Assembly: GCA_009760855.2 (NCBI GenBank)
Contig: WPIO01000040.1
Span: forward strand, 237,501-301,500
Direction: 5' to 3'
Length of the DNA: 64,000 nt
DNA from: Cristatella mucedo
Lineage: Eukaryota; Bryozoa; Phylactolaemata; Cristatellidae
Shown here piece after piece: positions 4,960-24,800 of the stretch (position 1 is its first letter; every line of letters starts with the position of its first letter). The position numbers and the translations under genes were made by a program. Below the pieces are notes generated by a model. The model was not told the origin of the DNA. It saw nothing but the letters and a program-made list of their open reading frames with translations, and searched no databases.

Positions 4960-5046
4960 CTAGGCTAGGCAAGGCAAGGCAAGGCAAGGCAAGGCAAGGC
5001 TAGGCAAGGCTAGGCAAGGCAAGGCAAGGCAAGGCAAGGCAAGGCA
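4960..5046. repeat. (AAGGC)n tandem repeat
   Basis: A pentamer array with occasional TAGGC variants lies just inside the intron of GT92 gene 1. Confidence 0.95.
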
Positions 5047-5327: not shown

Positions 5328-5485
5328 CTGGTTTGGCCCAGCGGTTAAGGTGCTTGCCTCGGTCCAAGGTCAATGTGAATGCATTTAATGGTCAAGGTCG
5401 TGAGCTTGAACCCCGTGGCATAAGTGAAGCGTCTGAATAGAAGTTAAGTTGTCTTAGGACGCTATACAAATTTTATATAAAAAAG
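5328..5485 (+). mobile_element. SINE-B copy in GT92 gene 1 intron
   Basis: It has a tRNA-like head GCTGGTTTGGCCCAGCGGTT with a clear A box, then a decayed B box (GTGAGCTTGAACCCC). The LINE-like tail follows (AAGTTGTCTTAGGACGCTAT then AT-rich). Confidence 0.85.
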
Positions 5486-6138: not shown

Positions 6139-6325
6139 GTGAGCCGCGATGGCACACCAGGTAAGGTGGTTGCTTTTCACGACCTCGGAACCGAGGTTGT
6201 GGGTTCGAATCCGGCGGTGGGCGATCCTTTATCGGCACTGCAAGCGGTGATGGTAGCCTGGTAAAGGCTCTTCTGTCGCTACACAAAAAGAGTCTGTTAA
6301 ATCAGATAGTATTTATTTATCCTTT
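6139..6325 (+). mobile_element. SINE-A copy in GT92 gene 1 intron
   Basis: The head is GAGCCGCGATGGCACACCAG, the B box is GGGTTCGAATCC, and the ACTGCAAGCGGTGATGG hairpin and CTCTTCTGTCGCTACACAAA segment follow. The tail is TATTTATTTATCC. It lies about 170 bp upstream of the catalytic-exon acceptor. Confidence 0.9.
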
Positions 6326-6494
6326 ATTTTTATGAACAAGGCTACTGAATGAGCCTTGACCTTTCTCATCAGATTCAGGGTACGGGTGCCAAGTGCGCTT
6401 TTTCTCGCGAGCGCCCGCCATGCTCAAGCTCAAGACGCACTTTGCATGCCGCGCGTGCGCCTGCCTAGGCCGGACGTTTTGAGTTCGCTTGCAG

Positions 6495-7635: not shown

Positions 7636-8010
7636 ATGGCAATCGTGAGAGACACGTGTGCCGCCGGACCACTAACTGGATCGAGCTTTCGGGCGGCTTC
7701 GCCTCTCAGCTCTCTGTCTTGTGGTATGGCTCGCTGTGGCGGGCGAAGAAGTATTTATTGCCTACGCTGCGTCAAGCTTCTTGCGCTTGATTGGCTGCCA
7801 TAGCTCATCAAGGTATCATGGGAAGGTTAGCTTCCGGTGCGGCGGTCTATTGAATTCAGTCATCCCACATGCGGCTTTCATAAAGCGAGTTGGGCGAGCG
7901 ATGCTTGAAGGCGTATTACTAATAGCCAGCTACGACGTGCCGCGCTTTTATGTAGTATGGGCATGTTAGCGTCAGTTTAAGCTAGTAAGCTTTCACACGG
8001 CACGACTGAT
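7636..8010 (+). other. 3' flank of GT92 gene 1
   Basis: This region should contain the 3' UTR. I see no unambiguous AATAAA signal and no further gene, only one short chance frame (7721-7969) with no recognisable domain. Confidence 0.3.
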
Positions 8011-8019
8011 GTGACTCTC

Positions 8020-8088
8020 GCACAAACACACACACACACACACGCACGCACGCACGCACACACACACACACACATATATATATTCTTA
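8020..8088. repeat. (CA)n microsatellite
   Basis: CA repeats interrupted by CACG units, ending in a short TA run. Confidence 0.95.
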
Positions 8089-8619
8089 TTCTCTGGCAAT
8101 CGTGAATATGTCAGCGTTTCGAGGACCTGGAATGCTTGCTGCCTTTCTCAAGTGAAGCTGTGCATGCGTTTCGGAGCACAGCACTGTTGGATGAAATGAC
8201 GTCAGTTCGACCAAGTCTCGCGACGAACGAAGTGTAGAGTGTGGCAAACAGAAAGGCGTCGGAAATTTAAAGCTGGATTTGCGGGAGGGGCCAACTGAGA
8301 GCAACAAGAGCGCCTAGCAAATGGTCGATCGTAGCTCTTAGCCGATGGATATTCGAAAACGTCTCAAGCTTTTTAAAAGATGAAAAGAATTTGAAAGCAT
8401 GCATTCATTGGCTGGGGATGCATGCATTTCAAATCTAGAAAAATATTCCAAACTAATTGCGACTGCACTTCATTAGTCAAACACACATGTTCAGATCCAT
8501 TTTACATGATAGTCAAAGCTATGATCCCGATCTTCAGCACTACTAGACATAAAAGGGAAATCACACTGTTTCGGGAGCTTTCATTTCTAATATTTTACCT
8601 ACTCTATTCATGTAACTGT

Positions 8620-9560
8620 TTAGGAGATTAGGAAATTGACATTCGTTTTTCCAGCTCCACTAATAACTTTAAATCCAACTGGAATTCTAGTTAACGCGGC
8701 TTGATATCTTCAACCTCCATTAACATTAACTAACCCAATGTCGTCTGCTGGTAGCGTAATATTCACATTTTGAGACAAATTTACAAATTTATTGCCTCCA
8801 ACTATATGTACAAGAAACGATTGTTATAGGACTTTTGTCAACGGTTGTCCAGGTATAGCTGATAGAGAAAGGTATTTCATCTTGCAACATAGTTCCAGCT
8901 AATGATAGCACTACTACGTCGCTAACTCTTCTAGCACTAGCTGTGTCAGCATAGGATTTGTTAACATAGTCTGTTGGCTTGGTGGAATTGGTTATGCTAC
9001 TATTTCTAGTGTCTAGGGAACTACAGGAACTAATTTAGAAAACATCTCGTTTCATATCTCCATAGGTAACGCAGAAGTTATCACCTAGAGTGGAAGGATT
9101 AGTAGAAGTGGTGTTCCAATACGTAGATGTTATAGCGAATCATTCCATATTAAAATATCCAGTCATCGTATCGCCAGATTTGTTAAATTTAATCCAGTTG
9201 ACTTTTAACAACAAAATCGCTAGAATTAATAGCAGCGCCAGCGTTAGTCAATATTTTACGTAAACAATTAATTGTGGATGCGGTAACTTTACCTGAAGCG
9301 ATATAATTTTAATGTTTAACAACGCAATTTAAACAAGGAATGCAGATTTTGAATTAACAGAATTACCATTCTTCAATTTCGAATGAATTTAAGCCTAGCA
9401 AGTATTGCGCTTCATATCGCAGAATGATCTTATCTTCAATCGAGCGTCTAGACCATAGGCATTTTATTTCTGCAAGTTTCTTTAGACTTTCTATCGTCAT
9501 TCATACCATCGTGACTACAACGATAACATTCATCTTAAGAGAAGCCATTAGCATTAGTTA
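8620..9560 (-). pseudogene. Viral fibre-like protein, decayed
   Basis: On the minus strand several frames hold the repeating module typical of viral and phage fibres: a K-x-GDTMTG-x-x-x-M turn, then a proline-containing stretch, then D-x-V-x-K-x-Y-x-D. Visible pieces are NKSGDTMTGYFNM near 9160-9205, KPTDYVNKSYAD near 8955-8990, and a beta-rich head with NITLPADDIGLVNVNG near 8730-8775. It ends PVGFKVISGAGKTNVNF before a stop at 8620. Further upstream EDKIILRYEAQYLLGL suggests the N-terminal shaft. Stops and frame changes break it throughout. In such viruses the fibre is a spike or attachment protein; that role is inferred from the module only. A second fibre-like fragment lies at 20650. Confidence 0.6.
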
Positions 9561-9869
9561 GGATACTTTTAAATTTAATTTCAGGTAACTTTGCGACTAT
9601 CGGTTCAAACACTTTTCCGAAAAGTAATGGTGCTCTTAATTCTATAGATTTATTGCTTATGTATTTTTAAACTTTATTACATACCATTTCTTGAATAATG
9701 TTTTCGTCAGCTTTTACATTTCCAAAGACTACATCGGTGCCCAGTATCGAATATACTTCAGATCCATCGATGTTTAATCTCATAAACTCTAACCACTCAT
9801 TGCTATCTCGCTCTATTTATATAAAATGCAAAGTAGTTTAAATTAATAAAAAAGAACTTGAACCGCGCG

Positions 9870-11343
9870 TGGTTTCGATGCTCTCAAAGCAGCTCCATTG
9901 CCATTAACGATGAGATCGAATTCCGTTTAAGAAATAATCATAACGCTGTAAACTTAGCAGTTGGGTTGGTCTTATACTTGATAGTGACATCTAGAATTTT
10001 AGCATTCCTGAGAGATTGCTCGTTAAATCTAAGATTGGTGGCGTGGAAAGGATACAGAGCAACGTAATCAGGAAGACCGATTCTAGTTGCAGCTACGTTT
10101 TTGCTAACACCTGGGAACTGTTTCCTAAACTTGGTGAAATCCATGTAAGCCATCGAGCATTGAGCTTTAGGGAAGCTGTTTATGCGCATCAATGCTGGGT
10201 ACTGGCTTCCACATCAAGATCACTTTAGATCTGTCATGCTTTCTACGTTAGCCTGATTGAATACTGCGTTATTAGCAGCGCAGCTATTCTACTTATTCGT
10301 ATTCTGAAATGCATCTATGAGCTACCTAACTTTTTAATCTTGCGCGCGAACGTTAAGTCTATACGTTTGATGAAAACCATCCGCTATACGTGAAACTGCT
10401 TGCCTTCCGTTTCTGTAAGTGAGCTTAATTCTACCAGTCGACTCTCGCGTTTTATCGATTAGAGATCTCTGTATCGAGATGCTAGGCTTAACTGTATGTA
10501 TAGTTAGGCGAAGTTGTCGATGCCTACTCGAGCACCGCTGGTTGCGTTAGCTGCATGAGTAGCGGGAACAGCAAAATGCAATGCATTCTCAGTCTCCAAA
10601 CGCTCCTCCCTTTAGATCGAGTTGAATGTTTGTGTTATAAATGATGCATGTCTGCGAAGAATCCAGAGATCCTATCCAAAGGTTCCACTGAAGAATTAAT
10701 TCGGCTGAGTTTGAGATAATAGTGCTAGTTCCTCATTGTTTGCCCAAAAGTTTGTTGCACCAGCATCGGCGCATGCATGCAGGATTAGTATAAGAGGCTA
10801 CTGAAACTCAATTACCTCATACCGTTGGAAGATGATAATTTGCGTCCGCAGAACCTTCATCCTTTCTCCAAAACGATGTTAGCCCTTCACCCCTATTATA
10901 ATTATTAGGATACAACATTGTGCCCAGAACTTTCGAAGTTATAGTCATTCAATAGTCAGTATCATAAGATTCAACTTCATCTCTTCCAATTCGCAATCGC
11001 ATTCGATCGAAAGCAGCATGCAGCTCCATCATCGACGGGTGTGACGTCAACTCAGCAGGTGCTTGATAACAAGTACCTGCTCACAGGAGTACCAGCCGTC
11101 TGAGCTGTAGCACTCTTCCAAAGTTTTACACTTCCTTCAACCAACAAGTAAGCACCAGACAGCACAAAGTAATCCCTGTTCCGAGCTACTACAAAGAACC
11201 TTAAAACTCCTCAAGGAATAATTTATGCTTCCAGAGTTCCATCAGCTGGAGGAAAGTTATGTTACTGAATGTCATAGATAGGTGCCGGAGGCAGTTCCCA
11301 ATACTTCATGTGAAACATCTTGCCCAGATCCAAATCCATTATC
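9870..11343 (-). pseudogene. Viral capsid-like structural protein, decayed
   Basis: On the minus strand the N-terminal part, after MDLDLGKMFHM, reads LPPAPIYDIQ and then RDYFVLSGAYLLVEGSVK. This resembles the D-Y-x-x-L-S-x-x-Y-L motif seen near the start of Polinton/adintovirus capsid-associated proteins. At the C-terminal end an intact stretch of 84 residues (9938-10192) reads LYPFHATNLRFNEQSLRNAK and then ILDVTIKYKTNP, the kind of beta-strand ending seen in the same proteins. The centre (10200-10900) is full of stops. Which capsid component it is (major, penton or minor) is not decidable by eye. The order ATPase, structural genes, fibre on one strand supports a virion role. Confidence 0.45.
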
Positions 11344-11350
11344 CCTGTAC

Positions 11351-12074
11351 CCAGGCTAGCTTCGGTTGGCTGGAAGCCGGCGGCTATAATGAGGGTGGGG
11401 TCACCGGCTAGGCCGGGGTGGGACCCTACGGCATGTGCGATGACGTGAGGTCACCGGGCTCATGGGTAGGAGAAGTTGGCCAAGTAAGTCGTGGTGTTGA
11501 AGGCTTCCGGTCTCGCCGAGTTATGCACCTGGATTCGTGCAGGCGTGCTCCGGCGATGCTGCCACGCACACAAGGGAACGAGTACCCAAGGCCCGAGCGG
11601 AGCTGGATAGCTCGCTCGTTGTTGAGACTTGTATATTCTGCGTTCCCCGCGTAGCGTGTTCGTGGCCCCCCCGTGTGTTGGCGTCTTTCGGTGGAAGCTC
11701 ACGACTGTGGTAGTTGTCGACTCGGACTAGTCAAGCAGTTACTCAGCCAGCCGGGTCTTGCACGGCGTACGCTCGTACTGTTGGATTCGAAGTTGGTACA
11801 ACGACAGGTCTGCGGAAGCCGACTGACCCCAACTAACACGTCTGCTCGCGCTTGCTGCGTCGTCTTGCGCCCCTATAGTGTGCTTTGTTTAGGACCCTCC
11901 CTGAAGACTCTTTTAGTTCTCCTGTTGTTGTTGGCGCATGCGTTATTATAAAGAGGTTTAACCTGACTGCCGCTCGTCTTACCCTAGCTCAGCGGCATGG
12001 CGAGCGGCAGCGTGGCCGGAGTATGGCGGGATTTGGCGGGAAATAGCCTCTGACCCCCGGGACTCGGCTACATT
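11351..12074. mobile_element. GC-rich insertion flanked by 7-bp direct repeats
   Basis: A 724-bp GC-rich segment interrupts the AT-rich viral sequence. CCTGTAC stands on both sides (11344-11350 and 12075-12081), as a target-site duplication would. On the minus strand the viral reading appears to continue across it if the insert is disregarded. No transposase, tRNA head or clear terminal inverted repeat is visible. A solo LTR or a non-autonomous DNA element are both possible; the 7-bp repeat could also be chance. Confidence 0.5.
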
Positions 12075-12329
12075 CCTGTACTTAAAAATATTTATCCTCT
12101 TTTTTAATCTACAAGCCTCCACCCATTCCACTTGTGGATGCACGGCCCTTCTGCATGACTTGCGAAGAAGTCTCATGTGGAGGAGGTTCGATTACCCTAC
12201 TGTCTGTCTGTTTCTTTCAGCATCGTTTCTGGTTCTTTCTTAGCCTTAGCGCGTCATCAATCTGTCAAACTCTTTACAAATTACACGATCGCTATTTCTC
12301 AGTCGACGCTCACAATCCGCTTCCTCAAA

Positions 12330-12800
12330 CTGTTTTCCCACTGCTTCCTCTTTCTATTCGCTCTTTCTCTTCATCTTCATCCTTATCTTCGCGCTGAATC
12401 TTTTCTTTTACTTTTAATCTTCATATGCCTTTCGCCCATCATCTTTTGACTTTGCTTCTCTTGATCTTCCTTACATTTTGTGGCCTCCAACCTTTTTTGA
12501 ATGTCTTTTGCTACTTTAGCACCTTTATACTCATAAACTTTATTTGCAATTGCAATACGAGCGTCAACTGCTGTTTTTGCTCCGCTAACAGCTGTAGAGA
12601 CATGTTCTTTACCAAAATCAACTACTTTTTGTTTACTTGCACTAATGTGCCAACTGCTCCTGGTCCAACGATCATTTTTTCATTAAATCCACGTGCTTTG
12701 TTTAGTAAAGCCCATCTTGCTCTCTATATGAATTCTTATTTAATTTCAACGGTGGCTACGGTTTTGCCTATAGTAGCAACCTTTTTTTTATTCTGATTAA
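12330..12800 (-). pseudogene. Viral unknown protein, Ala/Lys-rich, decayed
   Basis: Minus-strand frames carry helical, charged sequence such as KEHVSTAVSGAKTAVDARIA and YKGAKVAKDIQKRLEATK, with Lys/Glu-rich sequence after it. Stops lie on either side. This composition fits a core, scaffold or DNA-binding protein, but I do not recognise a family. Confidence 0.3.
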
Positions 12801-13069
12801 ACTAAATCTGTGACTTGTTGCTTCTTCTAGTGCACCAAAAGTAAGATCTAGAAATGAAAGATTACCAATATGCGCGTCTACTTTCCTCCGTGGAAAATCT
12901 ATCTGCCAAATCTATGATTAATAACGCTTCACAAGGCTTCTAGTTATAATAATTCTTGCTCACATCTATCAAATTTAAATTGAATCCAATCGATGATCCG
13001 ATCGACTAAAATTTAAATTAACTCCAACTTCATTCACATCTTCGTTAGATGGTTTTTGCATAATATATA

Positions 13070-13203
13070 GTTCACTTGTATAGCGCCCCAAGAGAACTTA
13101 ATCTCTATTCAGGCGTTTCACATATGCCTCCGGGCTCGAGCCCACGACCTCAGCCAGACTATGGTCGGGGGCGAGCACCTTAACCGCTGGACCACGCTAC
13201 ATA
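13070..13203 (-). mobile_element. SINE-B copy inserted in viral block
   Basis: Read on the minus strand: GTAGCGTGGTCCAGCGGTTA head, GTGGGCTCGAGCCCGG B-box region, then AGAGATTAAGTTCTCTTGGG and GCGCTATACAAG. It splits viral remnants. Confidence 0.8.
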
Positions 13204-13362
13204 CGTTCCAGAGAAATAAATCGCTTCCTCAATCTCTTTGTAAAGAGTGCCACCTACCATGGCAGGATCAAAATATCTTTGCAAGTTGGATGCGAAACCT
13301 AGAGTATCGCCTGTAGATGTAGTTCAACCAGCCAACGCTTTCGATCCTAGAAATACTATATG

Positions 13363-13540
13363 TTAATGGCCCAATAGCTAAGGTGAATGCTTTTCACGAC
13401 GTCAATCCCGAAGTCATGGGTTCGAATCCTGTAGTGGGCAATTCTTTATCGCCACTGCAAGCGTTAGTGATAGCCTTAAAGGCTCTTCTGTCGCTAAACA
13501 AAAGTGGCTGTTAAATCAGCTAGTATCTTTTATAAGTCGC
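13363..13540 (+). mobile_element. SINE-A copy inserted in viral block
   Basis: Head GGCCCAATAGCTAAGGTGAA, B box GGGTTCGAATCC, then ACTGCAAGCGTTAGTGATAG, CTCTTCTGTCGCTAAACAAA, and tail AGTATCTTTTAT. It lies about 160 bp from the SINE-B copy. Confidence 0.85.
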
Positions 13541-13827
13541 CCTTCACTTGCATGATAAACTTGCCATCACCACCCAACCTGAAATTGATATTATCTCCAA
13601 CACCTGCTGTGGCTAAAGCTTTTTTCAATACCATAGATAATAAACCACTATCGTAAAACCAGGTATAACTGTTACATAACTATAGTTATCATTGTCACTT
13701 TTAGGCTTGCAATAAAAAGCGTTCATTTTTTAAGCGATATTTGATACTGTTGCATTCACATACGTAAACTCTATTCTTTTAAGAACATTTTCTTTATATT
13801 GTTTACTGCATACCTTTGGATTTAGAG

Positions 13828-14520
13828 TTACGCTCCATTCAGATTATCGCTACTACTACTGACAAGTTTAATAACTTCCATTCTATATAAAGTCTCTAAT
13901 ATTTCAATGTCTTCGACAATTTCTTCTTCGGTAAAGGCTAAAGGCAATCCACTTTGATCCGTAAACCCTACTCTAATAAAGCTAAAGGTATTTTTGGACA
14001 AAGTGGGATATTTAAAAAAGCTAGGTTCACAAGCCATCAATTAACCTTGGTCGAAATTAAAGGAAAACTTTCCCAATATTTAAGTTCCGTTGCTGTAACT
14101 CGTAGATTGTTTTATTTTATCGCGATACGCCACGATCGTGCTATTAGAACCTACGGATAAGTTTTTTCAGAATACGTTTTATTATTCGCTGTGCACGTAA
14201 CGAAATTCTTGATTTATGGATATGTGGTAGCAAAATTGGGATCAGTCGTATGTGCATCAGCAGTAAATCCTAAAACTGGATTAATCTAGTATTTACTAGG
14301 TAGATAAATGCTTCCAGGTGAAAGAGTGATCCGCCCTGTCAACGTTGCGGTATCAGCACCGATTTGCAATTTGTCAGTGCTTCTACTTCGCACGATACTG
14401 TTACTGATAGTGTCTACAACTCCAGTTGACCATCCTTTATATGTGAACGCTGAATAGTTACCAGGTCTCAACGCTATAAATTGCTCAGATCAACTTGACA
14501 ATACACACGCAAAAGTTTTG
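13828..14520 (-). pseudogene. Viral structural-like protein, decayed
   Basis: The minus strand reads LRPGNYSAFTYKGW and then LQIGADTATLTGRITLSPGS, and after stops LGFTADAHTTDPNFATTYP. A final 70-residue open piece (13828-14040) contains FSFIRVGFTDQSGLPLAFT. The T-D-Q-S-G-x-P-L-x-F ending resembles the C-terminus of small capsid/penton-like proteins of Polinton-type viruses, where a strand of this form precedes G-E-x-I. Here it is followed by EEEIVEDIEILETLYRM. Several stops separate the pieces. The assignment is by resemblance only. Confidence 0.35.
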
Positions 14521-14880
14521 TTAACTTCATTAATATTTTTAAGATAATTGTGCCATGAGAATTTTTTCAGGGCAATCTTAACCGATCTACTTATCTTAAT
14601 GGCCGGAATACAAGTTTTGGAAATGCTTGATCCTTTACCCATTAATGATATCATGAATCATCTGGTCACCGTATTCAAATTCCCGAGAATGTATACATGT
14701 ATGTATCTCCGTCTGTAACTCCAAAAAGCCATAAAGACTATATGAGTGTTACGCAGGAGAGTTCTGTATAGCGCACTCGCAGCCTAAGCGGCTTTCGGTA
14801 CGCATTCGGTAGCCAACAGATTTCGTCTCACGCAACAAAGAGAAAGTGGAAGAAAATGAGAATATCACTGCAAGTTTTTT

Positions 14881-15105
14881 TTATCGCGCTCTCAGTATTT
14901 GCAATATCTCCAACAGTCTTCTATCTATATCCGCTATAATTTTCTTTGGAATCTTGTCGACCGTACCCAAGTAGTATACCGCAGAAAAAATGGAATTGAC
15001 GATGCCAGTGCTATCGGCAGCGAGCTTTTTCATCCATAAAATGAGTTTACTTTCTACATCTTTATGGTCTTTCAAAAACACGGCACGGTATTTACACCTT
15101 TCCAT
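14881..15105 (-). pseudogene. Viral unknown protein fragment
   Basis: An open frame of 74 residues starts at an ATG and is helical and Lys/Asp/Leu-rich (ILWMKKLAADSTGIV, IPKKIIADIDRRLLEIL). No family was recognised. It is co-oriented with the ATPase and structural genes. Confidence 0.3.
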
Positions 15106-15363
15106 CTTCTCTTAGGCGTGGATTTTGCTTGTTCTTAGTAGATTGTATCATCACCGGATTAAGAGCTAATGATGAAAGCAATTCTATTGGCAAGCTCTTT
15201 ATTCTTATCGTCTTAAGCATTACTAAAAAGTTAATAAGCTTTTTCCATGCAGGAATCAGTACTTCCGTTCGTTTTTACTGAATACCTTACTTCGCTTTAC
15301 AGTTTTTTCCAAGAGGCAAATGATCCATCAATCCAAGAAGTTCTTTGACGGTTGCGGTAGACT

Positions 15364-15798
15364 TTACTTTAGCTGAGCCTGTGCTAGGATTGACTCCGTG
15401 AATTTGAGCAATGTTTTTGCTAAACTCAAATAACACATTTCTCGTTTCTTCGTTAGGTGCATTTGCTTTAGAGCGTTAATGAGATTTTTAGCCACATCCC
15501 CCTTCTTCACTTTCCAAGTAACTTTAATCAACGTTCTGAGTCTGCGCCAAGAGTCTGCGCCAAGAGCTGCAGTCTTGGGAGTTCTAGCTGAAGCTGCTAG
15601 CGAAGGTTTGATCGCAGCCAATCTCCGCAACTCTGCATTTGATAAATCGCTGATATCGCGGAAGTGCGGGAATTTGTAGCCATCTCTACAGCTTGTCTGT
15701 CTAAAGATGCTTCTGCCAAGTTTCTTTGTTCGATTTTGTCTCAAAATTTGAATCTTCAGTTCATCATCATACGTTTTCGCGTTATTAATTCTCTCCAT
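15364..15798 (-). pseudogene. Viral unknown protein downstream of the ATPase
   Basis: An ATG-initiated frame of 144 residues starts about 105 bp after the ATPase stop. It is Lys/Arg/Leu-rich and predicted mostly helical, with a basic central part (LGADSWRRLRTLIKVTWKVK). No domain was recognised. It may be intact or only lightly damaged, as its frame is among the longest in the left half of the viral block. A core or DNA-binding role is possible but unproven. Confidence 0.35.
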
Positions 15799-15903
15799 AT
15801 TTTGAAAATATTCTTCTTATTCAGCAAATTACTTTCTGTTTTGACTCATCTTCTATGCAAAGAGATTCCAAAACAATGAATAATAACTACCAGGGTCTAC
15901 GCT

Positions 15904-16560
15904 CTAGAACTTACCGTTAGAATCCCTTTTCGCGAGAACGATAAGGCAGTAGCCGCTTCTGTTGGCCGTGCTATTGTTAACCCAATTTCTAAACTTTCTG
16001 CTTTTTACGTTACCTGCATATGTATCGCGTATGTATCCCATATCCTTTTTTAAGCTTAAACATGACGATGAGGGTTGCATTAATATACATTTTTTATCTG
16101 GGTATTCCGGTAAATTGTTGAGACAGGTAAAAAGTGTTTGACTTTTTATGTCTATCTCTTGTAAAGCATTCCAAAAAAGGCATTTGATCTTCAGTCATCA
16201 AATCATCCAAGATGACGACGCACTTATCAAATGCAGGGAAGCTGTCTACTCTGGGCAAGATTTTGATTCCATCAATCCACTTGAATCTGCCGTTGGCTTT
16301 CTAATCCGTCGTTTGCTCGATTGTTTTGCACGAATCCCGATCTAGACTGCCAGCGCAAATGTGAAATTGATCGCGCAATTTAGTGGACGCTTTTCATCTT
16401 TGCCCGGAAGAAATATCCAGCTGCGTAGGACTTGCGTTTTGCCGCGCCCAAGGTGCCTATAGCAAGACTGCGCATTGGAACGCTAGGTAGAGGATCCAAG
16501 TGCCCCATTTTTAGAATCTCCCGTCCTAAATTGATGGGTCCAACTTTTGCAGTCATGCTC
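15904..16560 (-). pseudogene. Viral genome-packaging ATPase, decayed
   Basis: The minus strand holds the parts of an FtsK/A32-type DNA-packaging ATPase, which drives viral DNA into the capsid. The N-terminal frame reads MTAKVGPINLG..., and a Walker A-like GTLGA/GKT stretch lies near 16420-16460, split between two frames. Then an in-frame stop lies near 16300. The best piece (about 16100-16300) reads FDKCVVILDDLM, a Walker B with two acidic residues. It is followed by CFTRDRHKKSNTFYLSQQFT, matching the family's F-T-x-x-x-H-x-x-x-S-x-x-x-x-S/T-Q sensor region. The C-terminus ends SGYCLIVLAKRDSNGKF with a stop at 15904. At least three frame changes or stops mean no functional protein. This is the strongest single evidence for viral origin of the block. 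Confidence 0.65.
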
Positions 16561-16574
16561 TACCTACATTTAGC

Positions 16575-16902
16575 AAATTATATGGGAGAGTGTGCATTGC
16601 GCGCCAAGTGCCAGCAGCAGGCGGGAATGGTAGGTGAACGTTACGAAGAGAATGCAACTCCAAGAGGTGCGCGTGGAATGCTCACGGGTAAATGCATTAC
16701 GTGCGGATCGAAGAAACTTCAATTTACAAGTCTCAGAAGTGGCGGCGCAGGTTTCGTTTATGAAGCAAACTATAATGTGAGTACGGAAAGAGCAGGGGAA
16801 ATTGCGAGAAGAACTAGAAAAGGTGAATCAGAGAATGGTACAGGTGTGAGAAAGATGAAAGATATGATGAACAGAATTAGTAATAGGAAATCTATAAAAT
16901 GA
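16575..16902 (+). pseudogene. Viral zinc-ribbon (DUF5679-like) small protein
   Basis: A plus-strand open frame contains an ECALRAKC pair, then TPRGARGMLTGKCITCGSKK with a second C-x-x-C-G pair, then FTSLRSGGAGF and a basic, Arg-rich tail. Spacing and the x-L-x-G-K-C-x-x-C-G-x-K-K core match the small zinc-binding proteins common in adintoviruses and related dsDNA viruses, which may bind DNA or act as virion core proteins. The first Cys pair is spaced C-x5-C instead of C-x-x-C, which may reflect decay. The stop is at 16902. The true start is unclear because the frame is open to 16432 across the opposite-strand ATPase. Confidence 0.5.
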
Positions 16903-17370
16903 TGCAGCTTGGAATCATAGAAAGTGAGCTGAATCAGGTTGGAGTTACGATAAAAGAGCTGGAGATGGGCTTAAAGAGTTTGACAAATTTATCACAGCTT
17001 TTAAAAACGGTCTAAAAAAACTGAATTATAGACTTTTAACTGATGTGAATACCGTGCGTTACATTAAAGATCAGGAAATACAAAACTTGAGAGGCGTGCT
17101 TGCTAGAGATGTTGATAAGAATGAGAACTAAACGCAACGAATGCTGGATCTGTAATATAGGTGATTCAAGCAATATCACTGGATCTCGATTAAAGCATAT
17201 CCTAAAGATTACGTTCATTTCAATTTATTCGAAGCATTTACTCTACCCGAAGCATAAAAACATTTTGGTAGAATTCCGAAATTATCCACGTGTATTTTAC
17301 CATAGTACGATGAAATCGATTGCGGCAGACGTTTTTGGAGTTCCCGACACTCATGCAAACGTTTAATGAT
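16903..17370 (+). pseudogene. Viral unknown protein(s), frameshifted
   Basis: An ATG at 16903 opens MMQLGIIESELNQVGVTIKE. The reading then changes frame to FITAFKNGLKKLNYRLL and KDQEIQNLRGVLARDVDKN, and later to YPKDYVHFNLFEAF. The sequence is coiled-coil-like, Leu/Lys/Glu-rich. It is in line with the zinc-ribbon frame and transcribed the same way. No family was recognised. Confidence 0.3.
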
Positions 17371-17519
17371 GACTTTGGGTTAGTCATGGGTAGTCGTTTT
17401 GATGATTAATTTTCACATTTCTATTAAAGAAATGTATTTACATGATATAGGAAAACGTTTTTATAAAATATTTCAAGCATAACGTGTGAAATCAAGTAAG
17501 TCACAATTTCTTAGGGAAG

Positions 17520-17961
17520 ATTTTTGATTAATAAAGAATCTCCTCTAAAGGTTAGGTTGCAACTCAGAGAAACTGCCGATGGCAAACACTACATAAGCTC
17601 GTTTTCATGCCTAAATTCTAATGAAATCATTAAAAGCAAGATCGTTTTACATGCTAATGAAACGTCCAAGAAACTAAGCATACGTTAGGTAAGTTTGTTG
17701 GCGTTAGCGTATCGTTCATTAAAGGATACGAGACGTTATTTTACACATCGGTGATGGAAAAATTGAACTGAAATTAAAAACGTGGAAACAGTCGTTGAGA
17801 AACTCTTACATGAATTTATGATTGTGGGATTGATCGATGGATTGCACGCTTCGAAGAATACTTACAGAGTAGAATAGAAAGCCAATTACATTATAAAGTT
17901 GGATCAGGTGAAAGTGTATCGTTGCCAAGAAAAATAAGTGTAGAGATACGTAGAGATATGA
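17520..17961 (+). pseudogene. Viral unknown protein, frameshifted
   Basis: Plus-strand frames carry KESPLKVRLQLRETADGKHY and SSFSCLNSNEIIKSKIVLHA, and after a stop VGVSVSFIKGYETLFY. The C-terminus QLHYKVGSGESVSLPRKI is followed by EIRRDMIDISEF with a stop at 17961. The pieces look like one beta-rich protein of about 140 residues broken by at least two frame changes. The function is unknown. Confidence 0.35.
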
Positions 17962-18186
17962 TTGACATCAGCGAATTTTAACTTATTTTATTTTTTTAAG
18001 TCAAAATCTTAACCAATACAATTTCATTTTAAGGACAGATAATAATTTTGTATAATAAAAATGCCATACATTCCTCAGCAGTGTGTTTTGACATATGCGA
18101 GAATGACAGAACGTTTTGAAATGCATCCTTGAAATGAATCCATAGTCAGTAAAGTTACGCGAAAGAGTGTCAAAGCTTGAAGTAAA

Positions 18187-18640
18187 GTGGATTTTATTCA
18201 TCTTACTGAAGGTGCTTACGTTAGATTCGATTGTAAATCCTATCACAAATCTCACTTAATTTGGTTCTTCGTGACTGGTAACTGCCATAATATGGAGGTT
18301 GACCACATAAATAACATCAGGCATGATGGTAGATATGAAAACCTTGGACTAGCGAATGTTTCAAAACAATAAAGGAGCTAGAAAAATAAAAAATGATTGG
18401 ATGTTAAAGGTGTTTGGCTTACTTCTTATAATAAGTATTGCACTAATTTCTGTAAGACCATTGATGGAGTTAAGAAAAGGTGACTTTGGAGCTTTCGTGA
18501 CACGACAGAAGAAGCTGAAAAAACTTATACTCGTTTTGCGACTGAGAATGCGCTGGAGATTTTTCTCAGTATTTTTCTTAGTAGATCTTACTGTCTTTTC
18601 TTTTGTTAGCCCAAGTCCTAACCACGCTTTTTTGTCATAA
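18187..18640 (+). pseudogene. HNH endonuclease (HNH_3-like), frameshifted
   Basis: The plus strand reads YHKSHLIWFFVTGNCHNMEV followed by DHINNIRHDGRYENLGLANV. This is the phage/viral HNH pattern H-x-L-I-W-x-x-x-T-G, then V-D-H-I-N-x-x-x-x-D-x-R-x-x-N-L. The His of DHIN and the Asn of ENL, expected for metal binding and catalysis, are present. After SKQ the frame hits a stop at 18372. A different frame continues with GVWLTSYNKYCTNF and RDTTEEAEKTYTRFA, as the C-terminal DNA-binding repeat of these enzymes would, itself broken by a stop. Such enzymes are usually homing or free-standing nucleases in viral genomes. An unrelated 94-residue frame with a hydrophobic stretch overlaps here (18356-18640) and is probably a shadow. 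Confidence 0.6.
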
Positions 18641-18646
18641 TTTCAT

Positions 18647-19010
18647 CTACTTTTTAGCGTCTTTGCAAACACAATCAACCTGATCAGAATCAGCATCAAT
18701 TTTAGAAGCAGCTTCTGTAAACCTTAGATCAGATAGATTTCTGAATTCTGTACGCTTCGGTTCCTCTAGATCAAAAGTATCGGTGTCATCAATATCATGG
18801 GACTTACATGCTTTGTCTAAATCGTTGACACCCTTATAATCCTCTGCAACGCGTTCCTTAGCTGTTGACCATAGGCCACAAAAACTCTTCTTCCATGTAT
18901 TATTCCCCAGGATTCTATTTAGATAGAGGCATGTTTCTATTCTTACCGCCAATTAGTTGCTTGACAACTTTATCCATGAATCCAGAACCAAGTTTCTACG
19001 AGTACGTATT
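18647..19010 (-). pseudogene. PLA2-like (parvoviral VP1-type) viral protein, decayed
   Basis: The minus strand reads RVAEDYKGVNDLDKACKSHD, the phospholipase A2 helix with the catalytic His-Asp pair, as found in parvovirus VP1 unique regions and in adintovirus-type proteins. An upstream frame reads GSGFMDKVVKQLIGGKN, the usual lead-in. The calcium-loop Gly region between them is lost to a frame change. The Tyr normally following at H-D-x-x-Y is Asp here (HDIDD). The C-terminal half (DLEEPKRTEFRNLSDLRFTE) is acidic. In live viruses this domain breaches endosomal membranes; this copy is broken. Confidence 0.55.
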
Positions 19011-19444
19011 GCGATTTACTTGAAGATGCGTTTATGTTAACATATTCTTTACGCCTACTCCTTTCTCTACACTCTATTTTATGCTTTTTTGCTTGATTTA
19101 CAGTAACCATCTACGAATCTGCTGGACTAGGATAATACATAGCTTTGAATGTTAAGTTGATGGTTAGCGGAGAAGCTACACTGGGCTAAGCAACGACGGG
19201 TTTTCGATATTTTGCGAGCATCACTTTCACTTCTACGTGCATCTTCTATACTAAATCATTTTTTATTTGGTTTCTTATTACATATTCCTTATTCTATTTT
19301 AGCCTTTGTTTTAACCTATTACTTACTTTTAGATTTAGATCTACATAACATCCTAAAGATAATGCCCCATGTCTCTTCTTAATATTGGCTATCGCTCCAG
19401 TTTGATTTTCGCTTCGTTTTTAGAGAGCACTTAGACGTTCTACG

Positions 19445-19785
19445 CGAGTTCTCAGAGGCGGTGCTTCGAGCGTGTACACGACATCCCTGACTTGACCACA
19501 TTTAAAACGAAATTATAAACGCACCTATTTATGACAGAATTTAGTTTGTCCCTGTGATTCGTTCTTCATGTGCTTATGCGTGCTGACACTGCATGCTGCC
19601 ACTAACCGCACTTGCATGCTGATCCTGTGCATGTCACCCCTAACCGTGGTATTCATGTTGTTTATCAAGCATGATATTACTCACCATTCAATCGTGTTTC
19701 CTTTCCAGCCAATGTAAAGCGCCTAGAGAGAAATCGAGTTCTCTGAGGGCACTTTATCAAGTATGTTGTTATAATTATATATCGT
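19445..19785 (+). mobile_element. LINE-A 3' end inserted in viral block
   Basis: The end of the reverse-transcriptase frame (TSLT/DLTTFK-like) is followed by the 3' UTR with GTGCTTATGCGTGCTGACAC and CCACTAACCG, then CGAGTTCTCTGAGGGCACTT and an ATT/ATA tail. It closely matches the copy at 2185-2745. Confidence 0.85.
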
Positions 19786-19829
19786 TTCGTCTACAATCTT
19801 CTATATAAAAGTAGCAACTGCGATTACAG

Positions 19830-20520
19830 CTCCCTTAGTTATTCCAGCAGTACCTAGAGCAAAGGAAATTGATGCTACGATTTCTGGAATTTCAGGTAAG
19901 AAACGTCCAAGCTTTACCGGTACGAAACTCATTGACCAATATTTTGAACTGAGTTGACTAGTATCCCAACCAACATCTTTTCGAGTATTTTTGGAAGAAA
20001 CGCACCAGTAAATGGAAACCAGTCTACATTATATTTTCCAGCCAAATACAATGTCGTTGATGTATAAACCCAATTCTAAACTGGCAATCAATCATTTTCT
20101 CTAGATCACTCCTCTTCGCTTCCTTCGTTTTCCAACTGACGCCTCCATGTTTACCAGCAGCGATGTCATCAACGATTCCCTCAATGAAAAAACCTTGGTT
20201 CAGTATTCCAGGGATTCCTCATAAAAATCAACCAGCCAAGCTTTCTGCCTTCCATATCACGCTCAGATCTGTAAGAGCTTTTTGGAACTATGGTTGCAAT
20301 CTTTCTCGAAGCACTTAAGATTTATTTAGCTGCCAGTCTTGGAGCAAACGTTACGATGCCTTTAGCAGCTGCTTCACTTTCTCTACTTACAGCATCCACA
20401 GCAGTTCTTGCTTTTCCAACACCCTGTTTTGCTTCTTGCAAATCACCGCTAATGATTAGATTTATTATCTTAATCGTTGTATCAACTCCATATTGCACAG
20501 CATTATAATTCTTGTTAACG
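19830..20520 (-). pseudogene. Viral unknown protein, frameshifted
   Basis: Minus-strand pieces read AVQYGVDTTIKIINLIISGD then LQEAKQGVGKARTAVDAVSR. Further on they read GIVDDIAAGKHGGVSW, LYLAGKYNVDWFPFTGAFLP, and at the end SFALGTAGITKGAVIAVATF. The final Ala/Gly-rich hydrophobic stretch could be a membrane segment. The pieces suggest one protein of about 200 residues broken several times. No family was recognised. Confidence 0.3.
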
Positions 20521-20649
20521 CTAGCTTATTTTGTTTTATAGGAAAGCCTCTATTTATATGCTCATACTTCGATCGTATAGGTTGACCCGATAGCAGCTTG
20601 TTCTTCTGCGAGTCAGTCAAGTTGAGAATCATTTCCATTCTATATAGAT

Positions 20650-20945
20650 ATGTTGCAAACAAAGATTAATCCTACGTCGTTGATGGATTTAGATATGGGT
20701 ACCAATACGTTACCTAACATAGGCAATCCCACAATAAGTAGTAATGCCATCAATCTAAGATATTTTGGATTGGAAGATTTCAAGGGCAGACAAATAGTAA
20801 ACTTTTAAGATGGAATGTCCAATAACGATGCTGTGACTAAATCGCAACTAGACTATAAATTTGGTAAGATTCAACGGTACCGCCGTGAAAGAGAATGCTT
20901 TAACTGAAAAAGAAGCTGTAAAAAAGGTTGTATAGTAACTGAGCG
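20650..20945 (+). pseudogene. Second viral fibre-like fragment
   Basis: An ATG at 20650 opens MLQTKINPTSLMDLDMGTNT, followed by LPNIGNPT and then, past a stop, NNDAVTKSQLDYKFG. D-M-G-x-N-x-L-x-N-I-x-N-P-T and D-A-V-x-K-x-x-L-D are the same fibre module seen on the other strand at 8620-9560. It is short and ends in stops; probably the N-terminal part of a second fibre gene. Confidence 0.5.
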
Positions 20946-21378
20946 TTAACTCTAAATCCCTCCGCACCCATTCTTAGGTAGTCAGTTCCCTAGCATTAAC
21001 TAGAATGAGTGAACGAACACCATCGTGTATTTTAGTGGCTAGCATTATCAGCCAATCTGCTTTGAGCGTAAGCCGCCGCACTAAGCACATCGTGTTCACA
21101 TTTTTAATTTAAGATTGTTAAGGATCTCTGCAAAGATGCTGCCATCTCTAGTCTTTAAGAAATGCCTGCCATGTAAGAATCCGATGGTGTCTTTCGCAAA
21201 GCGTAATATTTCAGCATCGCCTTAGCGATTCCAACAGCGAATACCGAAGCTTCACAGTCTTACTCATTCCAATCGCGTAGATAGGAATGTTGGATGGCTG
21301 CAGCATGACGGCTTTTTGAGTTAGCATCTACGGGTCACGTGAGAACTGGAAAAGGAGGCAAGTGACTCATTCTCTATA

Positions 21379-22071
21379 TTATAGTAAAATCTTATAAATC
21401 GGAAGAGTCCCAACCGACACAGATAAGGAAAGGGGTGCTGTAAGAAGTGATACTGGATTAACAGATGCAAGTGCTGCTGGAGTCGTCTCTCCTGGAATGA
21501 TTGGTACTTGCCCTACCTCGTTGTTTGTTGACATTGTCGTCAGACGCGAGCTCATACCCGTAAAGGTGCTCGGCAAAACTGCGTAGAACTTATCCTTAAC
21601 GATGGGTTCGATATCAGGCTTGAAACCGCTAACTCTGCTAATGAGTGGAGACACCGAAAGAATCTGATCTGCATCCCAAGTGGTGTAATTGCTAATCTCG
21701 CTAGGCTCATCTAACCTATTGTCAATCTGAATCCTAACGTTAGCATCCAAATAAGCCGTAACTTGAGAGTTGTCAGCATTGATGACATTCTGAGCTTCGG
21801 TCTCACACTGGGCGATGTAAAACTTTCTCACGTTCGTATCGGTAAACACAGAGATGTCTGAATCAAGTGTTTGAGCATTGTAATGAAAAAGTGATAAGTT
21901 AACTTGGTAATCGTACTGCTTCAGTTTCTGAGATGCGGTAGCATCGCTGGCAGTTGTTACATCCGTTGTGGTGATAGTAGTAGTAGTGCTAGTAGCAGCT
22001 GGCGTAGATATTTTCTTTCCTATGCTAATGTAAAACATCAGGCACTCGAGTGAATGACCATAACTGACCAC
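21379..22071 (-). pseudogene. Viral unknown protein, longest open frame in block
   Basis: This is a 230-residue open frame on the minus strand. It contains a Thr-rich run (STTTTITTTDVTTA), then a likely globular part (DYQVNLSLFHYNAQTLDSDI, YLDANVRIQIDNRLDEPSEI, KFYAVLPSTFTGMSSRL) and a Ser/Val-rich C-terminus. Frames just upstream (22080-22330) continue in similar style (EGFTIAGLFKGKVLTLLD, SNYCAFAATNSGFSF). The intact gene therefore probably began near 22.3 kb or joined the next frame. The Thr run and beta-rich look suggest a surface or structural protein, but I do not recognise a family. Confidence 0.4.
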
Positions 22072-22318
22072 CTCATCTGATCACGAAAGCTTGGATCGAT
22101 AGGTGTTACTGCAAAGGTAGTAGAATCGAGGAGAGTTAAAACCTTGCCTTTAAATAGTCCCGCGATAGTAAAACCTTCACTATTTGGAACTGTATTCCAT
22201 TATTTAATAAGTAAGACTGCCATCAGATTGTAGAAAACTAAATCCACTATTGGTTGCTGCAAATGCACAATAATTAGAATTTCCAGAGTAAATATTACAT
22301 TTACCATCCGCCTTACTT

Positions 22319-22726
22319 TCAATCTAACCCATGATAACCACCTATATTTAAGTTTTTATCGATGACTGCATAAGTATTAGCAAATGCTAGCACACCGATA
22401 GTAGTGTTGCTTTCTAGCCTATACAGAAACGCAAGATTAAATTCTATAGTGGCAGATGTGTCTGGCATGATGGTTGAAGCTGAAGAGATCAAGTTTTGTA
22501 ATGCAGTTTCAGCGCTACTATTAACGGTATAAGTACGTACCAAGTGCAATAAATGACCGATATACTTACGAGGTAACCTAACAAGACAGCAAAACCTAGG
22601 ATCTCCATGATCTAAACATTCAACGCTAGCGAACCTCAATTTAGTGGTTGAAGCTAGCATTTTATTTAGGATCTCCCTGGCGTTATCTTTTCTCATAATC
22701 TTGTAAATCTTTAAAGACTGGTCCAT
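22319..22726 (-). pseudogene. Viral unknown protein (135 residues)
   Basis: An ATG-started frame reads MDQSLKIYKIMRKDNAREIL, with RLPRKYIGHLLHLVRTYTVN in the middle and ATIEFNLAFLYRLESNT near the end. It closes with a stop at 22319, directly before sequence leading into the 230-residue frame. It could be the N-terminal part of the same protein. The preceding 88-residue frame ends 36 bp upstream. No domain was recognised. Confidence 0.4.
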
Positions 22727-22762
22727 TCCTATAAAAACATTAAAAAATTAAAACTTAAAATA

Positions 22763-23029
22763 TTAGCTGATTTCATCTACTGAATCAAAATTTGCATCTC
22801 GATCAGATTTTGCGAATAACTCGATACCTTTTTGCCCTTTGTCTGAGTTAGCTTCATTTAAAATATCGTACTGCTTATTGCAAACTGAGTGCAACTCAGA
22901 AATGGCTGCCAAGCGATTTATGTTTTCCACTAGTATTTCAGCGAGGCTTCTCTTTTCCAGCAATATTTCTAGAATGTAAGTGTTGTTGTGATCTGCCATA
23001 ATGTTACAAATCTTATATGCTAGCTCCAA
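22763..23029 (-). pseudogene. Viral unknown small protein (88 residues)
   Basis: The frame MELAYKICNIMADHNNTYIL is followed by LLEKRSLAEILVENINRLAA. It is helical and Leu/Glu/Asn-rich, and ends SDRDANFDSVDEIS. An internal Met at MADHNN is a likely alternative start. It is open end to end and lies head-to-tail with the 135-residue frame, so these may be two consecutive viral genes. Confidence 0.4.
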
Positions 23030-23184
23030 CTATCTTCATACTGACATAAAAATTGTTTAAACCAAACATATTTAATTAGTGAAAGGAAATTATGTATTAC
23101 AAATGGCCCATCTACCTGGACTCTCACCATTTATCTTGTAATGACCGTAAGTGCAACTGTGTAAGCCGCTCTTGATTGATTGTG

Positions 23185-23366
23185 TAATGGCTCACTAGGT
23201 AAGGCGGTTGCTTTTCACGACCTCGGCCCCGAAGTCATGGGTTCGAATCCTGCGGTGGGCGATCCTTTATCACCACTGCAAGCGGTGGTGATAGCCGAAA
23301 AGGTTCTTCTGTCGCTATACAAAAAGAGGATGTTGAATCAGCTAGTATTTATTTATTTATATATCA
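23185..23366 (+). mobile_element. SINE-A copy near right viral edge
   Basis: Head AATGGCTCACTAGGTAAGGC, B box GGGTTCGAATCC, hairpin CACCACTGCAAGCGGTGGTG, then CAAAAAGAGGATGTT, and tail TATTTATTTATTTAT. It is one of the best-preserved copies. Confidence 0.9.
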
Positions 23367-23441
23367 CATGATTGGAACTTTGAAACCTAACCTGATTTCG
23401 TGTAATGCTTTTCTTAGTAGAAAGACACTTAGTAAAGTCAT

Positions 23442-23601
23442 AATGAGAAATATTATTCTTAACCACGCACTTTCTTTAACACCTTTAGCTTCAGAAGACT
23501 GCCCATCAATCATTATTGAACACATCTTTGGCTTTAAGAATATTGTCTCATTTGCTAAAAGTGTTAAAAAAAGTGTATGGTGAAGAATAATATTTCTCAT
23601 T
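23442..23601. repeat. Hairpin with 48-bp arms
   Basis: Left arm 23442-23489 and right arm 23554-23601 are inverted copies (about five mismatches by eye) around a 64-bp spacer. It sits where the AT-rich viral block gives way to the C-rich minisatellite. A minus-strand frame of about 107 residues (23364-23687) runs through it, with a hydrophobic end, and may be a shadow. Confidence 0.8.
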
Positions 23602-23696
23602 CTGAGGTTCCGCCATCGGAAGGTAATATATGCGTTTTTCAGCACGTCCCAGGTGGCGGCGGTCCAATGCCCGTGCACGAAGAACAAGCTTCACGC

Positions 23697-23940
23697 GTGC
23701 TTCCCCTCGCTCTCCCCCTCGCTCTCCCCCTCGCTCTCCCCCTCGCTCTCCCCCTCGCTCTCCCCCTCGCTCTCCCCCTCGCTCTCCCCCTCGCTCTCTC
23801 CCCTCCCCCTCGCTCTCCCCCTCTCCCCCTCGCTCTCCCCCTCGCTCTCCCCCTCGCTCCCCCCCCCCCCCCCCCCTTTCCCCTCTCGCTCTCCCCCTCG
23901 CTCTCCCCCTCGCTCTCCCCCCCCCTCCCCCCCCCCCCCT

Positions 23941-23972
<32 letters not shown>

Positions 23973-24800
23973 CCCCCCCTCCCCCCCTCGCTCTCCCCCT
24001 CGCTCTCCCCCTCGCTCTCCCCCTCGCTCTCCCCCTCGCTCTCCCCCTCGCTCTCCCCCTCGCTCTCCCCCTCGCTCTCCCCCTCGCTCTCCCCCTCGCT
24101 CTCCCCCTCGCTCTCCCCCCTCGCTCTCGCTCCCCCTCGCTCTCCTCGCCCCCTCGCTCTCCCCCCTCGCTCCTCCCCCTCGCTCTCCCCCTCGCTCTCC
24201 CCCTCGCTCTCCCCCTCGCTCTCCCCCTCGCTCTCCCCCTCGCTCTCCCCCTCGCTCTCCCCCTCGCTCCCCCCCCCCCCCCCCCCCCCCCCTCCTCTCT
24301 CCCCCCTCGCTCTCCCCCCCCTCTCTCTCCCCCTCGCTCCCCTCCTCTCCCCCCCTCCCTCTCCCCCCTCGCTCTCCCCCTCGCTCTCCCCCTCGCTCTC
24401 CCCCTCGCTCTCCCCTCGCTCTCCCCCTCGCTCTCCCCCTCGCTCTCCCCCTCGCTCTCCCCCTCGCTCTCCCCCCTCGCACTCCCCCTCGCTCTCCCCC
24501 GCGCCTCCCCCTCGCCCTCCCCCTCGCTCTCCCCCTCGCTCTCCCCCTCGCTCTCCCCCTCGCTCTCCCCCTCGCTCTCCCCCCCCCTCTCTCCCCCCTC
24601 TCTCTCCCCCTCCTCTCCCCTCGCTCTCCCCTCGCGCTCTCCCCCTCGCTCTCCCCCCCCTCCCCCTCGCTCTCCCCCCCTCGCTCCCCCCCCCTCTCCC
24701 CCTCTCTCCCCTCGCTCTCCCCCTCGCTCCCCCTTCGCTTCCCCCTCGCTCTCCCCCTCGCTCTCCCCCTCGCTCCCCCTTCGCTTCCCCCTCGCTCTCA
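23697..24800. repeat. C-rich 12-bp minisatellite (CCCCCTCGCTCT)n
   Basis: About 1.1 kb of CCCCCTCGCTCT units is interspersed with pure C runs and degenerate units. The last 100 bp use a CTTCGCTTCCCC variant. Long open frames on both strands and in several phases (up to 561 residues of Ser-Pro-Arg or Gly-Glu-Arg) are consequences of the repeat and not genes. Confidence 0.97.

What the first reader, a model, noticed from the sequence alone, without database searches (positions are those of the whole stretch)
8345..23630. Endogenised Polinton/adintovirus-like virus of unusual gene content
An AT-rich 15-kb block carries remnants of a packaging ATPase, capsid-like protein, PLA2-like protein, zinc ribbon, HNH nuclease and two fibre-like proteins. 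I see no polymerase or integrase and at least six proteins of no known family. The mix does not match a standard Maverick/Polinton, so it may represent an undescribed lineage of integrated small dsDNA virus.
Basis: partly seen in the sequence, partly recalled or inferred. Interest (0 to 1): 0.88.

Follow-up and report, generated by a model that had tools for sequence, protein, structure and literature searches.

The report
Decayed Polinton-like DNA virus fossil
A 15,000-letter AT-rich stretch of what looks like an animal genome is most likely the decayed remains of a small DNA virus related to Polintons; it is too broken, and too poorly matched in the databases I could search, to show that it is a new kind of virus.

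Summary
The AT-rich block is real: GC change-points fall at 8345 and 23640, and it holds more open frame than chance gives. One domain is statistically solid, an HNH_3 nuclease at 18181-18369. A packaging-ATPase-like motif set (15907-16559, minus) and a parvovirus-type PLA2 motif (18650-18952, minus) were not produced by Markov resampling, but no database match supports them beyond chance. The zinc ribbon is half intact. Capsid and fibre claims are not supported: the 233-aa frame finds no homologue and its model is uninformative. No polymerase, integrase or terminal inverted repeat was found. Five dispersed repeats lie inside, so the block is old and partly not viral. Best reading: a decayed, possibly truncated, Polinton/meldvirus-class provirus, family undetermined. 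PLA2, HNH, fibre-like genes and PolB/integrase-less members have precedents in that assemblage, so the mix alone does not make a new lineage. The decisive test, other copies in the same genome, could not be run: the genome search was unreachable in 17 of 17 attempts.

The parts
8345..23640 (.). AT-rich block, the probable decayed provirus including later insertions
   Evidence: GC change-points 8345 and 23640; GC 0.395 for 8345-23000 vs 0.547 for 5000-8345
16097..16300 (-). packaging-ATPase-like piece (hydrophobic-DD Walker B-like stretch, RxRH, YLSQ)
   Evidence: motif set once in the block, 0 in the rest of the window, 0 of 1000 and 0 of 600 resamples; Pfam 0 families, best PHROG E=0.061; the family motif is recalled
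15907..16194 (-). probable C-terminal part of the same ATPase gene in another frame
   Evidence: adjacent frame on the same strand; assigned by position and eye only; best Pfam hit E=0.032 to an unrelated family
16345..16559 (-). probable N-terminal part of the ATPase gene (two overlapping frames); no intact Walker A in any single frame
   Evidence: Walker A pattern count 0 in the block; 0 Pfam families for 16345-16482 and 16383-16559
16429..16899 (+). 157-aa frame with a half zinc ribbon (KCxxCGxKK) in its middle; its first part overlaps the ATPase N-terminus antisense
   Evidence: KCxxCGxKK 0 of 600 resamples, full C2C2 in 86 of 600; composition above the maximum of all 200 resamples; best Pfam E=0.11; no homologue
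18181..18369 (+). HNH_3 homing-type endonuclease piece
   Evidence: Pfam HNH_3 6.9e-7; PHROG_99 6.2e-10; matches in 195 phage records at E<=0.01, first-listed 45.5% identity
18650..18952 (-). parvovirus-type PLA2-like piece (CG loop, then LDxAC..HD)
   Evidence: PF08398 E=0.063; strict motif 0 of 600 resamples; composition above all 200 resamples
   Evidence: no homologue; mean pLDDT 35; longer than all of 200 resamples, equalled in 1 of 500
19804..20665 (-). run of protein-like pieces, possible minor virion or core protein (guess)
   Evidence: 20325-20525 above all 200 resamples in composition, 20027-20218 reached in 8 of 200, 19804-20028 in 171 of 200; no family
12386..12679 (-). lysine/alanine-rich piece, unknown protein
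   Evidence: composition above all 200 resamples; best PHROG E=0.0053, unknown function
15367..15816 (-). 150-aa open frame just downstream of the ATPase-like pieces, unknown
   Evidence: Pfam none at E<=1, best PHROG 0.18, best NCBIfam 0.057
22322..22747 (-). 142-aa open frame, unknown
   Evidence: best Pfam 0.2, no PHROG at E<=1; one search gave two 13-residue matches, taken as chance
8792..9034 (-). possible fibre-like piece
   Evidence: PHROG_11393 tail fibre E=0.0092, not significant over 128 pieces
19477..19786 (.). dispersed repeat inserted in the block; copies overlap frames 49748-50284 and 60332-60751 that I take for LINE tails
   Evidence: 76.6-82.7% identity to five other window loci over 304-320 columns, plus shorter matches
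13364..13533 (+). tRNA-type SINE copy inside the block
   Evidence: 80.8-84.3% to four other copies;
23184..23358 (+). tRNA-type SINE copy near the right edge
   Evidence: 84.3-90.9% to four other copies
13060..13194 (.). dispersed repeat inside the block
   Evidence: 91.7% to 56208-56339, among others
14701..14852 (.). dispersed repeat inside the block
   Evidence: 73-74% to 836-996 and 44448-44588

Best explanation
The block is the decayed relic of one insertion of a small dsDNA virus of the Polinton/meldvirus assemblage into an animal-like genome. Shown: foreign composition, excess of broken frames, one HNH homing-type nuclease, dispersed repeats inserted later. Inferred: when alive, an A32/FtsK-HerA-class ATPase packed the genome into a capsid, a parvovirus-type PLA2 helped the particle through a membrane, and the HNH nuclease was a selfish or packaging-linked passenger. 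Inferred: no gene is functional now; the recognisable genes are broken by stops and frame changes, and the element may have lost its ends, which may be why no polymerase, integrase or terminal inverted repeats are seen.
For: GC change-points at 8345 and 23640. Open-frame excess, 0 of 500 resamples. HNH_3. ATPase motif set 0 of 1000 resamples and absent from the other 48.7 kb. PLA2 strict motif 0 of 600. PLA2-bearing Mavericks are in print in an insect, with weak profile scores for ATPase and PLA2 there too (PMC5803895). HNH_3 and phage-like fibres are in print for PLVs (PMC12220804). Size in the range of intact vertebrate Mavericks, 12.7-24.6 kb (PMC8097293).
Against: No profile hit to a viral ATPase, capsid, protease, polymerase or integrase family at E<=0.1 in 128 pieces; 19 Pfam and 23 PHROG families reached E<=0.1 where about 13 are expected from 128 pieces, so apart from the HNH piece the hits are near chance. 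No homologue for three queries among 5.8 billion proteins. 8 of 8 IMG/VR scans gave no credible relative. PolB and integrase score strongly in the insect Mavericks (4e-12 to 6e-17), so their absence here counts against a complete standard Polinton. No TIR: score 23 against null median 25 of 100 shuffles. Motif patterns were written after seeing the sequence. Of the six pieces above all 200 resamples in composition, one lies in the GC-rich island and one is antisense to the 233-aa frame.
Confidence: 0.68

Rival explanations
1. Fragment of a larger DNA virus (nucleocytoplasmic large DNA virus or similar) rather than a Polinton-class element; ATPase, PLA2 and HNH were carried by that virus.
For: [quoted passage not shown] the A32-class ATPase is named after a poxvirus gene; no element ends found.
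Against: Composition block of about 15 kb, the size of a Polinton-class genome; none of the 19 Pfam families at E<=0.1 is one I know as typical of large viruses (judged from names).
Confidence: 0.12
2. Polinton/adintovirus-class virus that truly lacks polymerase and integrase: a separate lineage replicating with another system and integrated by host repair.
For: No PolB or integrase hit although these domains score strongly in the insect Mavericks described; virus genomes with adenovirus-class virion proteins and no recognisable PolB/integrase are reported (PMC11071296).
Against: Decay, five later insertions and no detectable ends, so loss or truncation explains the same; no replication gene of another kind was found either. 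The HNH piece could itself be the remnant of a homing-endonuclease insert in a polymerase or helicase gene, which are known in polintons and PLVs (PMC11071308 passage). Only 10 of 179 flank frames were scanned, so genes displaced into the flanks are not excluded.
Confidence: 0.12
3. Not one virus: ordinary AT-rich intergenic DNA with dispersed repeats and one horizontally acquired HNH gene; the ATPase and PLA2 motifs are chance or over-read.
For: Only HNH passes library-wide significance; first-order Markov resampling is a simple null and the motifs were post hoc.
Against: Rare motifs and an HNH domain within 3 kb, frame excess 0 of 500 after removing repeats, sharp composition edges.
Confidence: 0.08

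Closest known systems
Insect Mavericks with a PLA2-bearing CAP protein (Spodoptera frugiperda; PMC5803895, passages seen)
   Same: A32-like ATPase and a parvovirus-VP1-like PLA2 domain in one integrated element
   Different: Those carry PolB and integrase with strong scores; here neither was found, and the present element is decayed
Vertebrate Mavericks (PMC8097293; one section and passages seen)
   Same: Integrated element of similar size with a packaging ATPase and genes on both strands
   Different: Those have PolB, integrase, capsid and protease genes in two modules and TIRs averaging 402 bp; none of these was detected here
Adintoviruses and meldviruses (PMC11071296; abstract and passages seen)
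   Same: Midsize linear DNA viruses of animals; genomes without recognisable PolB/integrase are reported
   Different: Adintoviruses are defined there by PolB with an OTU-like domain, BLASTp-recognisable hexon and an integrase with chromodomain; no PolB or integrase found here, hexon not testable
Polinton-like viruses of protists (PMC12220804; passages seen)
   Same: HNH_3 endonucleases (in one PLV immediately upstream of the packaging ATPase gene) and phage-like fibre proteins
   Different: Protist hosts; no sequence relation shown here, and the fibre claim here is not supported

Membership tests
Maverick/Polinton | protein-primed PolB | tested here: not met
   no PolB family among 128 pieces of the block at E<=0.1; caveat: decayed, possibly truncated element; flanks mostly not scanned
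Maverick/Polinton | retroviral-type (rve) integrase | tested here: not met
   no integrase family among 128 pieces of the block at E<=0.1; same caveat
Maverick/Polinton | FtsK-HerA/A32-class packaging ATPase | tested here: inconclusive
   motif set present but no profile hit; A32 scores are weak or missing in the insect Mavericks too
Maverick/Polinton | major and minor jelly-roll capsid proteins | tested here: inconclusive
   233-aa frame: no homologue, model at pLDDT 35 is uninformative
Maverick/Polinton | adenovirus-type protease | tested here: inconclusive
   no hit, but CDD scores are weak in the insect Mavericks too (6.1 and 0.58)
Maverick/Polinton | terminal inverted repeats | tested here: not met
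   best inverted alignment between 8100-9400 and 22000-23690 scores 23, null median 25, 95% 29 of 100 shuffles
Adintovirus | hexon recognisable by BLASTp to adintovirus hexons | not testable with these tools
   I found no adintovirus sequence in the collections searched; definition from PMC11071296
Adintovirus | PolB with OTU-like domain and integrase with chromodomain | tested here: not met
   no PolB, OTU, integrase or chromodomain family among 128 pieces at E<=0.1; same caveat
PLA2-bearing virion protein (parvovirus VP1 type) | Ca-binding CG loop and catalytic HD motif (pattern recalled) | tested here: inconclusive
   both present in order at 18650-18952; PF08398 E=0.063 is at chance level for 128 pieces
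HNH_3 homing-type endonuclease | HNH_3 core | tested here: met
   E=6.9e-7, 29.2 bits against cutoff 24.8

The most novel reading that the evidence does not exclude
The block is a fossil of an animal-infecting small dsDNA virus lineage that combined an A32-class packaging ATPase, a parvovirus-type PLA2 protein and a phage-type HNH homing endonuclease, and that never had PolB or integrase, so replicating and integrating by other means.
Probability: 0.12. Interest if true: 0.65.

Novelty: new member of a known kind. Interest (0 to 1): 0.36.

Why it matters
If it is a distinct lineage, it would extend the host and gene range of small dsDNA viruses preserved in animal genomes and add to the case that virion and replication modules are swapped freely. 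As it stands, it is an unplaced fossil whose main use is as a query for less decayed copies in the same and related genomes.

Tried and rejected
Profile scans of all 128 stop-to-stop pieces of at least 45 aa in 8345-23630 against Pfam and PHROGs: only HNH is beyond chance. The second-best Pfam entry (RecA_dep_nuc, E=0.0035) and two PHROGs of unknown function (0.0053, which is piece 12386-12679, and 0.0079) lie at about the level expected from 128 pieces; I did not trace which pieces gave RecA_dep_nuc and the 0.0079 PHROG. NCBIfam on 10 pieces: three hits of 0.043-0.064, nothing better. Protein-database searches for the 233-aa frame, the ATPase-like piece and the zinc-ribbon frame: no hit at E<=1. 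IMG/VR scans with five pieces and three degenerate ATPase-motif patterns: the two loci, L001 and L002, match 13 residues only and were set aside as chance. PDB sequence searches with the PLA2 (one hit, 0.12), ATPase (seven hits, 0.59 and above) and HNH (none at 0.1) pieces. Structure of the 233-aa frame without relatives: mean pLDDT 35, not used for a fold search. tblastn of the ATPase and PLA2 pieces in the phage collection: E of 5 and above. Rfam on the window: 0 matches. ARAGORN: 0 tRNA genes. Edge-to-edge repeats: inverted none; a gapped direct match between 8778-8805 and 23000-23033 scores 32, which 10 of 300 shuffles reach, so borderline and not used. Pfam on 10 of 179 flank frames. Host identity could not be fixed: GT92 genes and a reverse-transcriptase remnant suggest an animal; that is inference.
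Full report
What was checked.

The block. On the right it lies beside a 12-bp minisatellite at 23703-24799. Inside there is more open frame than in Markov resamples: longest frame 233 aa (maximum 195 in 200 resamples), 28 frames of 80 aa or more (mean 10.9, maximum 21). The dispersed repeats and the GC-rich stretch at about 11-12 kb could inflate this, so I cut them out: 19 frames against a mean of 7.8, reached in 0 of 500 resamples; the longest frame was equalled in 1 of 500. Of the 19, 12 are on the minus and 7 on the plus strand.

Later insertions. Five stretches, 942 bp together (13060-13194, 13364-13533, 14701-14852, 19477-19786, 23184-23358), recur elsewhere in the window; two are copies of a tRNA-type SINE, five copies of which are 81-91% identical (the tRNA-type label comes from the B-box-like sequence seen and is my reading, ARAGORN found no tRNA gene). 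So the block is older than these insertions. No second copy of a virus-like part was seen in the window: apart from these repeats and an inverted repeat within 23438-23605, no stretch of the block matched elsewhere at E<=0.01, with simple repeats and the minisatellite filtered out.

Domains. Of 128 stop-to-stop pieces (all of at least 45 aa in 8345-23630) scanned against Pfam and PHROGs, one is clearly significant: 18181-18369 plus, HNH_3 (E=6.9e-7 Pfam; 6.2e-10 PHROG_99), with matches in 195 phage records at E<=0.01, all below 60% identity. 19 Pfam and 23 PHROG families reached E<=0.1, where about 13 are expected from 128 pieces, and several of these belong to the HNH piece, so the rest is near chance. 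The PLA2 hit (PF08398, E=0.063) is inside that noise by itself; the motif, a CG loop followed by an LDxACxxHD core, occurs once in the block, nowhere else in the window, and in 0 of 600 resamples, the shorter core in 1 of 600. The ATPase motif set at 16097-16300 minus (hydrophobic strand with DD, RxRH, then an SQ) also occurs once in the window, with 0 of 1000 and 0 of 600 resamples; neighbouring frames 15907-16194 and 16345-16559 on the same strand look like its two ends, but there is no intact Walker A in one frame and no profile hit. These motif patterns are recalled and were written after seeing the sequence, so the counts show rarity, not proof. The zinc ribbon (within 16429-16899 plus) keeps one CxxC pair; a full C2C2 pattern occurs in 86 of 600 resamples and three times in the right flank, the KCxxCGxKK half in 0 of 600.

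Not supported. The capsid claim: the 233-aa frame at 21382-22080 minus had 849 word-sharing candidates and none with E<=1 among 5.8 billion proteins, no relative in IMG/VR, and a single-sequence model with mean pLDDT 35, which says nothing either way. The fibre claim: 8792-9034 gives a tail-fibre PHROG at E=0.0092, about one expected by chance over 128 pieces; 14289-14489 gives none.

Composition test. Six pieces exceed the maximum of every one of 200 resamples in protein-likeness of amino-acid composition: 16429-16899, 12386-12679, 18650-18952, 20325-20525, 11265-11450 and 21398-21583. The fifth lies in the GC-rich island and the sixth is antisense to the 233-aa frame, so the test is not specific; the 233-aa frame itself was reached in 4 of 200, a SINE frame in 5 of 200.

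What it most likely is. The combination fits a decayed Polinton/meldvirus-class insertion. Insect Mavericks with an A32-like ATPase and a parvovirus-like PLA2 protein are in print; there the ATPase, protease and PLA2 score weakly while PolB and integrase score between 4e-12 and 6e-17 (PMC5803895, passages). That makes the lack of ATPase or protease profile hits here uninformative and the lack of PolB or integrase hits meaningful, though those were whole proteins against another library, and truncation and decay remain. PLVs carry HNH_3 nucleases, in one case immediately upstream of the packaging ATPase gene (PMC12220804, passages), and phage-like fibres. Homing endonucleases also sit inside polinton polymerases and PLV-type helicases (PMC11071308, passage), so the HNH piece could be a trace of a lost replication gene. 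Genomes with adenovirus-class virion proteins and no recognisable PolB or integrase are reported (PMC11071296, passages). Intact vertebrate Mavericks run from 12.7 to 24.6 kb and have TIRs (PMC8097293, one section); no TIR was found here (score 23, null median 25), and a direct edge match is borderline (10 of 300 shuffles).

Function. Inferred for the living virus: the ATPase packs DNA, the PLA2 opens a membrane during entry, and the HNH nuclease spreads itself or trims DNA for packaging. Inferred now: none works; the locus is a fossil.

Literature. A search for papers holding both 'adintovirus' and 'PLA2' found 0; a search for Polinton, zinc ribbon, PLA2 and HNH (at least two terms) listed 12 of 81 papers, none of which by title describes this combination in an animal; Polinton with phospholipase A2, minor capsid and vertebrate (at least three terms) listed 20 of 42. 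Searches were broader listings. These searches cover open-licence papers only; the adintovirus founding paper was not held.

Limits. I therefore file it as a Polinton-like relic of undetermined family, not as a member of Maverick/Polinton or adintoviruses, whose polymerase and integrase criteria were tested and not met. 'New member of a known kind' refers to the broad assemblage of small dsDNA proviruses.

Noticed in passing
6469-7632 + and 32734-34362 +: Two paralogous glycosyltransferase family 92 genes (PF01697, E 1.7e-24 and 4.7e-24), the second with long Ala- and Arg-rich runs.
   Followed up: partly
23703-24799: 93-copy 12-bp CCCCTCGCTCTC minisatellite beside the right edge of the AT-rich block.
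   Followed up: no
13364-13533, 23184-23358, 27467-27642, 1970-2148, 6149-6320: Five copies of a tRNA-type SINE in one window, 81-91% identical.
   Followed up: partly
23438-23605: Imperfect inverted repeat (52-nt arms, 88% complementary, 64-nt spacer) at the right edge, MITE-like.
   Followed up: no
48410-49018 +: Reverse transcriptase remnant (RVT_1 E=3e-12); the LINE-like tail frames at 49748-50284 and 60332-60751 gave no Pfam family.
   Followed up: partly
11000-12000: GC-rich island (0.50-0.57) inside the AT-rich block, probably a non-viral insertion.
   Followed up: no
8778-8805 and 23000-23033: Short gapped direct match between the two edges of the block, reached in 10 of 300 shuffles.
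   Followed up: partly
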